Of a stretch of 64,000 nt of DNA, positions 7,403-29,020 are shown piece by piece. Numbering within the stretch: the first letter of the stretch is position 1; each line of letters opens with the position of its first letter. Source of the stretch: Hyphococcus luteus (GTDB lineage: Bacteria; Pseudomonadota; Alphaproteobacteria; Caulobacterales; Parvularculaceae); NCBI RefSeq assembly GCF_002943565.1, contig NZ_PJCH01000010.1, positions 62,001-126,000 on the forward strand, in the 5' to 3' direction. A program made the translations under genes and the position numbers. Under the pieces are notes generated by a model. The model searched no databases, was not told where the DNA came from, and saw only the letters and a program-made list of their open reading frames with translations.

Positions 7403-9043
7403 ATGTTGACGATCTCAAATCTCGATTACCGCGTTGAGGCGCGCCCCCTGTTCGAGGGCGCGAGCGCCCAGATCTCGTCCGGCTGGAAGGTCGGGCTGGT
7501 GGGACGCAACGGCACGGGCAAATCCACCCTCTTGCGCCTGATCCGCGAGGAGATCGCCGAGCCCCCGGCCGCGAATGCGGCCAATCCAAAATCAGCGCGC
7601 CTTCGCGCGCGGGCGGAGAGCGCCATCCGCATGAGCGGCAGGGCGAGCCTCGGCTGGGTCGCGCAGGAGGTGGCGCCCACGGACGAGACCATCCTCGACG
7701 TGGTGCTCGCCGCCGATCATGAGCGCTGCGCCCTGATGGCGGAGGCCGAGACGGCCGAAGACCCCATGCGCATCGCGGATATCCATACCCGCCTCATCGA
7801 CATCGACGCCTGGTCGGCGGAGGCGCGCGCGGCGGAGGTCCTCAAAGGTCTCGGCTTTTCCGACGCGGATCTTTCCCGCGCGACGCGCGAGTTCTCCGGC
7901 GGCTGGCGGATGCGCGCGGCGCTTGCGGGCGTGCTCTTCGCCGAGCCGGATCTGTTGCTCCTCGACGAGCCCACCAACTATCTCGATCTTGAGGGCGCCT
8001 CCTGGCTCGAGGGCTATATCAAGAAATATCCGTATACGGTGCTCATTGTCTCTCACGACCGCGAGCTCTTGAACCGCTGCGTCACGCATACGATGGCGCT
8101 CGAGCATAAAAAGCTGACGGTCTGCCCCGGCGGCTATGACGCCTGGCTTGAGCTGCGCGCCGCGAAAGTCGCCCAGCTTGAAAGCCAGCGCGCCAAACAG
8201 GACGCGGAGAAGGCGCATCTGCAGGCCTTTGTGGACCGCTTCCGCGCCAAGGCCTCGAAAGCCCGCCAGGCGCAATCGCGCGTCAAGAAACTCGAAAAGA
8301 TGCAGGACGTCACGATCCCGCTCGCCGAGCGCACGACGCCGTTTCATTTCCCCGCGCCGAAAGACCCCTTGTCGCCGCCCATGCTGCATCTCGCCGGCGC
8401 CGATCTCGGCTATGGCGAGGATGCGCTGATCCTCGCCGACGTCGATCTGCGCGTCGATCCGGAAGACCGCATCGCGATTATCGGCGCCAACGGCCAGGGC
8501 AAGACGACGCTGGTGAAATCCATCGCCGGACGGTTGAAGCTGATGGGCGGGGCGTTGACCGCGCCGAATTCCATCCGCATCGGCTATTTTTCTCAGGACC
8601 AGCTCGACGAGTTGAGGCTGGGCGAGTCGGTGCTCGATCATGTGCGCCGCGCGCTCCCGAAGGACATGCCCGTGGGCAAGCAGCGCGCCAGGGCCGCGCA
8701 GATGGGCTTTTCCCATGAGAAGGTCGAAACGAAAGTCGAGAAACTCTCGGGCGGGGAGAAAGTGCGCCTGCTTCTCGGGCTCATGTCCCTCGATGCGCCG
8801 CATATCCTCATCCTCGACGAGCCGACCTCGCATCTCGATATCGACAGCCGCGAGGCGCTGATCTATGCGCTCAACGATTATCCGGGCGCGGTCCTGTTGA
8901 TCACCCACGACGTCTTCCTTGCCGAGGCGACGGCGGAACAGCTCTGGCTGGTGAAAGACGGCGCGGCGAAACCCTATGACGGCGATCTCGAAGACTATCG
9001 CGCCCTGATCACCCAGGCCGACAAGCGCCAGAAAGCGGCTTAG
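7403..9043 (+). CDS. ABC-F family ATPase
   Basis: A 546-residue soluble protein with two complete ATP-binding cassettes and no membrane segments: first Walker A GRNGTGKST at about residues 34-42, signature FSGGWRMRA, Walker B LLLLDEPTNYLD; second Walker A GANGQGKTT, signature LSGGEKVRL, Walker B ILILDEPTSHLD. The charged linker between cassettes (about residues 245-320, rich in Lys/Arg/Gln) is the P-site tRNA interaction motif region of ABC-F proteins, which act on ribosomes. It ends soon after the second cassette, so the DNA-binding C-terminal extension of Uup is absent. Which subgroup (EttA, YheS or Uup-like) is uncertain. Confidence 0.92.
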   Translation: MLTISNLDYRVEARPLFEGASAQISSGWKVGLVGRNGTGKSTLLRLIREEIAEPPAANAANPKSARLRARAESAIRMSGRASLGWVAQEVAPTDETILDVVLAADHERCALMAEAETAEDPMRIADIHTRLIDIDAWSAEARAAEVLKGLGFSDADLSRATREFSGGWRMRAALAGVLFAEPDLLLLDEPTNYLDLEGASWLEGYIKKYPYTVLIVSHDRELLNRCVTHTMALEHKKLTVCPGGYDAWLELRAAKVAQLESQRAKQDAEKAHLQAFVDRFRAKASKARQAQSRVKKLEKMQDVTIPLAERTTPFHFPAPKDPLSPPMLHLAGADLGYGEDALILADVDLRVDPEDRIAIIGANGQGKTTLVKSIAGRLKLMGGALTAPNSIRIGYFSQDQLDELRLGESVLDHVRRALPKDMPVGKQRARAAQMGFSHEKVETKVEKLSGGEKVRLLLGLMSLDAPHILILDEPTSHLDIDSREALIYALNDYPGAVLLITHDVFLAEATAEQLWLVKDGAAKPYDGDLEDYRALITQADKRQKAA

Positions 9044-28212: not shown

Positions 28213-28456
28213 GTTTTTACAGATTGCCGGGCGCGCACGATTCCCGTAATCTTGCCGTGGATGCGGGGAGAGGCCCATGCACATCATCATCGCCATTCTC
28301 GGCGCGCTGGCGGCGGCCTTCTGGGCATTCACCTATTTCATGCGCGCAGCGAATGAAGGCCGCGAGGCGATTGGCGATGTCAAAGGCGTCATCCGCCGGG
28401 GACAATGGAACCGCCGGGTCGATCAGCGGCTCATCGAAAACCTTTCCGACCCGCGC

Positions 28457-28505
28457 CCCGCGCGCGAATGCGCGCAGGTTATTATTAAGCCGCCTTCGCG
28501 GCTGG
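28457..28505 (-). repeat. 49-bp twin-hairpin element, copy 1
   Basis: On the minus strand: a CCGC-GAAG-GCGG hairpin, an AT-rich 12-15 base core, and a GCGCGC-ATTC-GCGCGC hairpin. It aligns with the reverse-oriented copy 2 at about 39 of 49 positions. Its removal restores the frame between SDPR and AAAVLLYQ. No open reading frame, no transposase and no clear target duplication. Confidence 0.85.
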
Positions 28506-28646
28506 GCGGCCGCCGTGTTGCTCTATCAGATGGCCGCCTATGACGGCGCCGTCACCGACCGGCAAGCGGCGCAGATTGTTGCGGATATGCGCGATGTTTT
28601 CGAAGCGGACGAGGAAACCGCGCAAGGGCTTTATGCGTTCGGCCGC

Positions 28647-28695
28647 CCGACCGCGAAGGCGGTCTGGTTATAATTTGCGCGCGTTCGCGCGCGGG
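28647..28695 (+). repeat. 49-bp twin-hairpin element, copy 2
   Basis: CCGC-GAAG-GCGG (28651-28662), AT-rich core GTCTGGTTATAATTT-like (about 28661-28676), and a perfect GCGCGCG-TT-CGCGCGC hairpin (28677-28692). It is in the opposite orientation to copy 1 and 141 bases away. The two terminal hairpins and the central core make each element look like a compact mobile palindromic repeat. Confidence 0.85.
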
Positions 28696-29020
28696 GCCGT
28701 CGGGCAGATCAACGACGCCGGCAACAGCGTGCGCAAGATCTTGCGGCCGGTGACCGAAATCTGCACCGATGAGGAGAAAAAACAGCTTGTCGCTCTCCTT
28801 GAGCGCACGGCGGAGATCGAAGGTCCGCCAGCGGACGTTCAGCGCCGCCTCATCGCCGAGGCGCGGCGGGTCCTGCTTGCCGCCTAAATCAATATTGCGA
28901 GACTGTAAGAGAGAAAAACAGCGCTGAAATTTGCCCCACGCCGCCGCTTGCCGTTATGGTGTCCCCTTTAGGCCCCGGCGGAGGGGGCGACGATCTGAGA
29001 GTTCAGGAAGGAGACGGACG

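What the first reader, a model, noticed from the sequence alone, without database searches (positions are those of the whole stretch)
28277..28887. Two inverted 49-bp twin-hairpin elements inside one gene
A TerB-like gene is split into three frames. Each break coincides with a 49-base segment, and the two segments are reverse complements at about 39 of 49 positions. Each segment has a CCGC-GAAG-GCGG hairpin, an AT-rich core and a GCGCGC-type hairpin. Removing both leaves exactly 171 codons. Such short non-coding double-hairpin mobile units, landing twice in a single gene, resemble Rickettsia palindromic elements or REPIN-like elements but are not an element I can name. They may be a new family, moved by an unknown enzyme. 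A sequencing error would not produce matched copies.
Basis: partly seen in the sequence, partly recalled or inferred. Interest (0 to 1): 0.8.

Follow-up and report, generated by a model that had tools for sequence, protein, structure and literature searches.

The report
Double-hairpin repeats that replace loops
A 50-letter DNA repeat made of two small hairpins has spread through one genus of bacteria, mostly standing in place of the tiny loop of other hairpin repeats and sometimes inside genes, and what moves so short a piece is not known.

Summary
The terB-like gene at 28277-28887 carries two copies of a 50-nt double-hairpin element (28457-28506 minus, 28646-28695 plus); a third lies in frame in an ABC-F gene (7564-7613). 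None of 24 aligned orthologues of the terB-like gene has an insert; each copy adds a net 46 nt (50 in, 4 out). The element is a genus-wide family: 27 of 28 genomes of the genus, 1 of 8 other genomes of the family, 0 of 24 of other families of the order. Of 159 copies collected, 103 sit in six kinds of other palindromic repeats. Same-flank comparison shows the element in place of 2-8 nt; in 33 of 53 distinct cases that is a terminal hairpin loop (14.4 expected), without target duplication. Genes are hit by frameshift (terB-like), by an in-frame stop (nitroreductase) and in frame at +45 nt (ABC-F, DusB, a helicase). Inside genes the hairpin signal rests on the terB pair alone. REPIN/RAYT membership fails: no GTAG/CGTC tag, no Y1 transposase in this genome. 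Best reading: an undescribed bacterial double-hairpin element, REP- and DHE-like, that spreads by loop replacement; the enzyme is unknown.

The parts
28277..28887 (+). terB-like gene (intact orthologues about 172 aa), broken into three frames by two elements
   Evidence: TerB match of an intact orthologue
28457..28506 (-). element A, 50 nt (CCC foot, hairpin 1 at 28488-28503, AT linker 28476-28487, hairpin 2 at 28460-28475, GGG foot); net +46 nt
   Evidence: (74.6 bits)
28646..28695 (+). element B, 50 nt (CCC foot 28646-28648, hairpin 1 28649-28664, linker 28665-28676, hairpin 2 28677-28692, GGG foot 28693-28695); net +46 nt
   Evidence: (75.4 bits)
7564..7613 (+). element C, 50 nt, inside an ABC-F gene, read through in frame; net +45 nt against six orthologues
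   Evidence: (74.7 bits)
7403..9043 (+). ABC-F family ATPase gene, 546 codons, open through element C

Best explanation
The two segments are copies of an undescribed, genus-specific family of about 50-bp double-hairpin elements: foot CCC, hairpin of 6 bp with a GAAG-type loop, AT-rich linker of about 12 nt, second inverted hairpin with a CTTC-type loop, foot GGG. The element codes for nothing and must be moved in trans. It spreads by replacing a short stretch (2-8 nt, mostly 3-5), most often the unpaired loop of a hairpin, so that a simple hairpin becomes a three-way (Y) structure. Most copies sit in other palindromic repeats, whose own spread carries the element along; a minority enter genes, where they break the frame (terB-like, twice), bring in a stop (nitroreductase) or stay in frame (ABC-F, DusB, helicase). 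Shown: family, distribution, insertion into genes, replacement of short stretches, loop excess in palindromes, paired changes in the stems. Inferred: that the acceptor is folded DNA (cruciform or single strand at the fork), that cutting on both sides of the loop precedes joining, and that a dedicated enzyme does it.
For: Copies: 15 places in the own genome at E<=1e-4, one of which overlaps a tRNA-Met gene and is taken as chance; 27 of 28 genus genomes. Absent from orthologous genes: terB-like 24 of 24, ABC-F 6 of 6 close orthologues, nitroreductase in the 9 rows that aligned at the site, DusB 9 of 9 rows shown, helicase absent in 6 of 8 rows shown, present in the two sister species G026 and G020. 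Replacement: 79 filled copies have same-flank empties; in 53 distinct empties the displaced stretch is 2-8 nt and lies in a terminal loop in 33, against 14.4 expected for random placement in the same window, 0 of 20,000 placements reaching it; 11 of 11 in host H1, 8 of 8 in H2, 5 of 5 in H5, 1 of 1 in H6. Stems: 7 of 15 pairs show more complementary pairs than any of 500 column shuffles over 88 distinct copies. The composite folds as a Y. Element similarity follows the genome as well as the host: 86.9% in the same genome and different host, 85.8% in the same host and different genome.
Against: Hosts H3 (1 of 6) and H4 (6 of 13) and the mixed rest (1 of 9) do not show terminal loops; in H3 and H4 I read the displaced stretch by eye as a bulge or junction of a larger palindrome, which was not computed. 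In genes the hairpin signal comes from the two terB sites: six sites together 1.2% of draws, 4.4% if another relative is taken for the helicase, and the four sites outside terB alone 19% or 49%. Composite repeats that stay foldable may be the ones that amplify, which would enrich loops without any targeting. Copies within one host and one genome are the most alike (91.2%), so part of the spread is that of the hosts. No enzyme was found. Empties within repeat families are paralogous places, so direction is shown only for genes.
Confidence: 0.6

Rival explanations
1. No dedicated enzyme: hairpin tips are exchanged between palindromes by replication template switching or gene conversion, and the double hairpin is simply a successful tip.
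For: Hosts are palindromes that stall forks (established knowledge); tip variants and nested tips occur (five 71-nt copies with another hairpin in place of the loop of hairpin 2); tandem copies sharing a foot; in the helicase gene of G020 a stretch beside the insert looks copied from the insert's own right half, compared with G026.
Against: The unit keeps the same CCC..GGG ends in unrelated hosts and in genes whose flanks share no evident homology with the hosts' arms (judged by eye). 27 of 28 genomes carry the unit with the same anatomy.
Confidence: 0.27
2. A REPIN-like REP dimer mobilised by a RAYT (Y1 tyrosine transposase).
For: Two inverted hairpin units per element, as in REPINs; RAYT-like Y1 genes exist in G003, G006, G017, G021 and G024, some of them element-rich.
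Against: No Y1 match in the own genome nor in element-rich G014, G020, G022 and G026; G019, without the element, has one. The RAYT-like genes are flanked by inverted GTAG-type repeats unrelated to the element. No GTAG foot. IS200/IS605-type insertion loses no bases (recalled).
Confidence: 0.06
3. Spread through an RNA intermediate, as others proposed for Allomyces double-hairpin elements because target duplications are lacking.
For: No target duplication here either; paired changes in stems.
Against: No reverse transcriptase was sought; nothing shows transcription; the element is nearly its own reverse complement, so strand evidence is lost.
Confidence: 0.06
4. The segments are ordinary parts of the gene, or assembly errors.
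For: None found.
Against: 24 of 24 aligned orthologues lack them; independent copies in other genomes.
Confidence: 0.01

Closest known systems
Double-hairpin elements (DHE) of Allomyces mitochondrial DNA and repetitive hairpin-forming elements of sponge mitochondria
   Same: Short GC-rich double hairpins, in intergenic regions and genes, mobile by comparison of relatives, no target duplication (passages of PMC2800124; the Allomyces paper itself was not seen).
   Different: Mitochondrial, other sequences; replacement of hairpin loops is not stated in the passages I saw.
REPs, BIMEs and REPINs (GTAG and CGTC super-families)
   Same: Short palindromic units in inverted pairs; intragenic copies and double insertions in single genes (uvrA, uvrB) are described; Thermomicrobium roseum GTAG-23 units lie within small palindromes with a 3-4 nt centre (PMC3733652: section 7 whole and passages).
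   Different: No GTAG or CGTC tag; no RAYT in this genome; a dimer of 50 nt in all; displaces the loop of CGTC-like and other palindromes, in at least six host families.
Rickettsia palindromic elements (RPE)
   Same: Palindromic, in frame inside protein genes of an alphaproteobacterium (passages of PMC10969869).
   Different: RPEs are about 150 bp with a conserved peptide in Rickettsia; no Rfam match in the window; sequences not compared.
MITEs
   Same: Small, non-coding, non-autonomous, repeated.
   Different: No target duplication; bases are lost; no parent transposon found.

Membership tests
REPIN / GTAG-REP with RAYT | GTAG (or CGTC) tag at the hairpin foot | tested here: not met
   The feet are CCC and GGG, the inner sides AT-rich, in 88 distinct 50-nt copies
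REPIN / GTAG-REP with RAYT | RAYT gene in the genome | tested here: not met
   PF01797: no match in the own genome; 9 of 28 genus genomes match at E<=0.001, 7 over the cut-off
REPIN / GTAG-REP with RAYT | RAYT flanked by the same repeat | tested here: not met
   Five RAYT-like loci of other genomes are flanked by other inverted repeats, most beginning GTAGGG; the name RAYT rests on recalled motifs, as the NCBIfam scan failed
REPIN / GTAG-REP with RAYT | two hairpin units in inverted orientation | tested here: met
   The model matches both strands of the same copies
MITE | target site duplication | tested here: not met
   2-8 nt displaced in 53 distinct empties; genes net +45 or +46
RPE | in-frame presence in protein genes | tested here: met
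   ABC-F, DusB and helicase at +45 nt with open frames
RPE | sequence relationship to a Rickettsia RPE family | not tested
   Only Rfam was scanned
Double-hairpin element (DHE) | short GC-rich double hairpin, mobile, no target duplication | tested here: met
Double-hairpin element (DHE) | mitochondrial, homologous to the Allomyces elements | tested here: not met
   Bacterial genomes; homology with the Allomyces sequences was not tested

The most novel reading that the evidence does not exclude
A mode of mobility not described for bacteria: a 50-bp double hairpin that excises the loop of a folded hairpin in the acceptor DNA and takes its place, so that palindromes are turned into branched three-way structures and palindromic repeats become its vehicles; the enzyme acts on folded DNA and is neither a RAYT nor Ku-dependent end joining.
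Probability: 0.33. Interest if true: 0.82.

Novelty: new variant of a known kind. Interest (0 to 1): 0.62.

Why it matters
Short palindromic repeats fill many bacterial genomes, and CGTC-type repeats are reported to lack a dedicated transposase (PMC3733652, passages). Here is a genus with filled and empty sites at base resolution, showing that a palindrome gains material at its unpaired tip and loses the old tip. That makes the question how such repeats move directly testable: any enzyme has to explain fixed ends, no duplication and loss of a loop. It also gives another case, outside Rickettsia, of palindromic elements kept in frame in working genes (DusB, a ligase-associated helicase shared by two species, ABC-F).

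Tried and rejected
REPIN/RAYT: rejected by missing tag, missing Y1 gene and unrelated RAYT-flanking repeats. Ku-dependent end joining after hairpin cutting: Ku matches in 1 of 28 genus genomes, G009 only, so it is not the general route. Known RNA family: none at gathering score in the window. Viral carriage: the pattern of the commonest form has no match in viral contigs. Two attempts to cluster flanks automatically chained nearly everything together and were useless; I replaced them by motif rules for host families, which leave some evident host copies in 'other'. A per-copy arm-pairing test on those faulty clusters was not significant and is superseded. RNA intermediate: not tested. Microhomology at junctions: looked at by eye only. 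Literature: searches gave no paper on this family or on Parvularculaceae palindromic repeats among the rows listed; most subscription papers are not held. PMC2884548 was looked at by passages and not used.

Limits of counts: the 159 copies come from 167 hand-picked best-strand rows, in stretches that I chose because they held copies; at least one weak row (L090:1560) and a weak hit in L038 were left out; some of the 159 are weak, partial or tandem units (135 are 48-52 nt long). In one search a few of the 53 empties are doubtful because a neighbouring copy or a shifted boundary is involved (for example L239, L086, L087, L090, L221:3993, L224). Only the best 100 candidates per genome were scored and 15, so copy numbers are lower bounds and the class-wide absence is of limited sensitivity. 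Of the 30 loci that one search returned, 24 were aligned; L058 and L061 (partial), L062 (own genome) and L063-L065 (weak, other families) were dropped. In one search, 14 rows were aligned and 4 of them were misplaced by my motif choice, 10 of 14 DusB and 8 of 14 helicase loci were shown.

Full report
What is there. The window's terB-like gene (28277-28887) is broken by two 50-nt segments, 28457-28506 on the minus strand and 28646-28695 on the plus strand. They agree at 40 of 50 positions. Each has a CCC foot, a 6-bp hairpin with a GAAG-type loop, a linker of about 12 nt (81% A+T over 88 distinct copies), a second 6-bp hairpin with a CTTC-type loop and a GGG foot. A third copy lies at 7564-7613. 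The pattern is absent from 100 shuffles of the window. Each copy also matches the model on the other strand: the element is nearly its own reverse complement.

A family, in one genus. A covariance model of five own-genome copies finds 15 distinct places in the own genome at E<=1e-4; the one at C3:275641 overlaps a tRNA-Met gene and is taken as chance. At E<=1e-4, 27 of 28 genus genomes match (G019 does not), 1 of 8 genomes from other genera of the family (G031) and 0 of 24 from other families of the order. Among 385 genomes of the class only the own genome matches at 1e-6, with 15 candidates scored per genome. Match counts in the genus run from 0 to 91, with about two matches per copy. A pattern scan of named genome contigs gives 73 stretches, labelled Marinicaulis sp., Parvularculaceae or Alphaproteobacteria MAGs, plus one 'Deltaproteobacteria' MAG contig. 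Contig lengths identify G021 as probably Parvularculaceae PL25a_bin.97. Viral contigs: none.

Insertion into genes. In the terB-like gene 24 of 24 aligned orthologues (21 of the genus, 3 of other genera) lack both segments; 13 are 519 nt against 611 here, so each copy is net +46. Apart from the inserts the length fits exactly, so the loss of the gene looks recent. Net +45 is seen in ABC-F (630 against 585 nt, six orthologues), nitroreductase (537 against 492 nt in G025), DusB of G027 (567 against 522 nt) and a ligase-associated helicase of G026 and G020 (675 against 630 nt). ABC-F, DusB and the helicase stay open; the nitroreductase has a stop inside. The helicase insert is shared by two sister species, so it predates their split and has not closed the frame.

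Insertion into other palindromes. I collected 159 distinct copies with flanks. By motif rules 103 lie in six kinds of palindromic repeat: 34 in H1 (GGATTCCCGC..GCGGGAATGAGC), 18 in H2 (CTTCCCCCG..CGGGGGAAG and kin), 18 in H3 (AAACCGGTTTTTCGC), 25 in H4 (CATCCCGGA), 6 in H5 (ATTCCGGA), 2 in H6; 56 are 'other', which still holds some evident host copies. For 79 filled copies the same flanks exist without the element. Examples: ATTCCCG-CTTT-CGCGGGAAT against ATTCCCG-[49]-CGCGGGAAT; CTTCCCCCG-TTTA-CGGGGGAAG against CTTCCCCCG-[50]-CGGGGGAAG. In 53 distinct empties the displaced stretch is 2 nt (4), 3 (15), 4 (13), 5 (10), 6 (8) or 8 (3); 33 overlap a terminal hairpin loop, where 14.4 are expected for random placement in the same windows (0 of 20,000 draws). 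By host: H1 11 of 11, H2 8 of 8, H5 5 of 5, H6 1 of 1, H4 6 of 13, H3 1 of 6, other 1 of 9. Mean unpaired probability is 0.58 in the displaced stretch and 0.26 in the flanking 8 nt. Filled sites fold as a stem carrying two hairpins. The 53 are not independent, since many share a host family.

Gene sites and hairpins. The two terB sites are small hairpins (stems of 4 and 5 bp; 8% and 3% of window positions do as well). Over six gene sites the summed stem is 20 against 12.6 expected, 1.2% of draws, or 4.4% with another relative as reference for the helicase; the four sites outside terB give 19% or 49%. So loop targeting in genes is suggested by the terB pair and not shown in general.

Structure and descent. 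Seven of 15 pairs have more complementary pairs than any of 500 shuffles; six pairs hardly vary and say nothing; relatedness can inflate this. Among 72 classified 50-nt copies, mean identity is 91.2% (same genome, same host), 86.9% (same genome, other host), 85.8% (other genome, same host) and 85.1% (both differ): part of the spread is with the host repeat, part across hosts within a genome. H1 resembles the CGTC-1 repeats of PMC3733652 (8-bp stem starting AT, 4-nt loop, CCA tail; passages), with a GCTC-like tag here.

What moves it. No Y1 transposase matches in the own genome; 9 of 28 genus genomes match, without relation to copy number: G014, G020, G022 and G026 are rich and have none, G019 has one and no element. 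The RAYT-like genes of five genomes have their own inverted repeats. Ku is in 1 of 28. I therefore favour an unidentified activity on folded DNA that removes a loop and joins the element in its place, with tip exchange by template switching as the main rival.

The pair in one gene. Both copies came in after the split from G025, and they differ at 10 of 50 positions, so they are not a fresh local duplication. Why two of the own genome's few well-preserved copies share one small gene is not explained; once broken, a gene tolerates a second hit, and double REP insertions in single genes are on record (PMC3733652, passages).

On re-reading the calls I corrected the number of other-genus genomes (8, not 7), described the nitroreductase as stopped rather than frameshifted, and added the weak result for gene sites outside terB. 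In that light I hold the novel case at 0.33.

Noticed in passing
L211:5004-5074, L212:5226-5296, L214:5081-5151, L215:4470-4540, L216:5306-5376 (all G021): Five 71-nt copies in which another small hairpin stands in place of the loop of hairpin 2: nested palindromes.
   Followed up: partly
L167, L168, L172 (G010), L183 (G026), L235 (G017): Tandem copies of the element with a period of about 45 nt that share a foot.
   Followed up: no
L360 against L359 (helicase gene of G020 and G026): Beside the shared insert G020 has a stretch that looks copied from the right half of the insert, without change of length: a templated change.
   Followed up: no
L053:2080-2129 (G006), L050:1388-1437 (G007): An H3-type repeat carrying the element lies just downstream of the intact terB-like gene; sister species G020 and G026 lack the whole stretch.
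   Followed up: partly
G000:C1:235214-235275 (L227:5215-5276): A degenerate 62-nt copy within an open frame matching the NADH dehydrogenase 20 kDa subunit, beside a duplicated stretch; orthologues not compared.
   Followed up: partly
L127, L128, L129, L130, L131: RAYT-like Y1 genes in G006, G017, G021, G024 and G003 with inverted, mostly GTAGGG-starting repeats at both ends.
   Followed up: partly
G016:C3:165289-165791 (L058): The terB-like gene matches in two pieces in G016 too, without an element in the locus.
   Followed up: no
G031: The only genome of another genus with model matches (9, best 1.3e-9); its copies were not examined singly.
   Followed up: no
L277 (JAJCZL010000040.1): A copy on a 3.2-kb contig of a 'Deltaproteobacteria' MAG from the same OFTM set as element-rich MAGs; a binning error is likely.
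   Followed up: no
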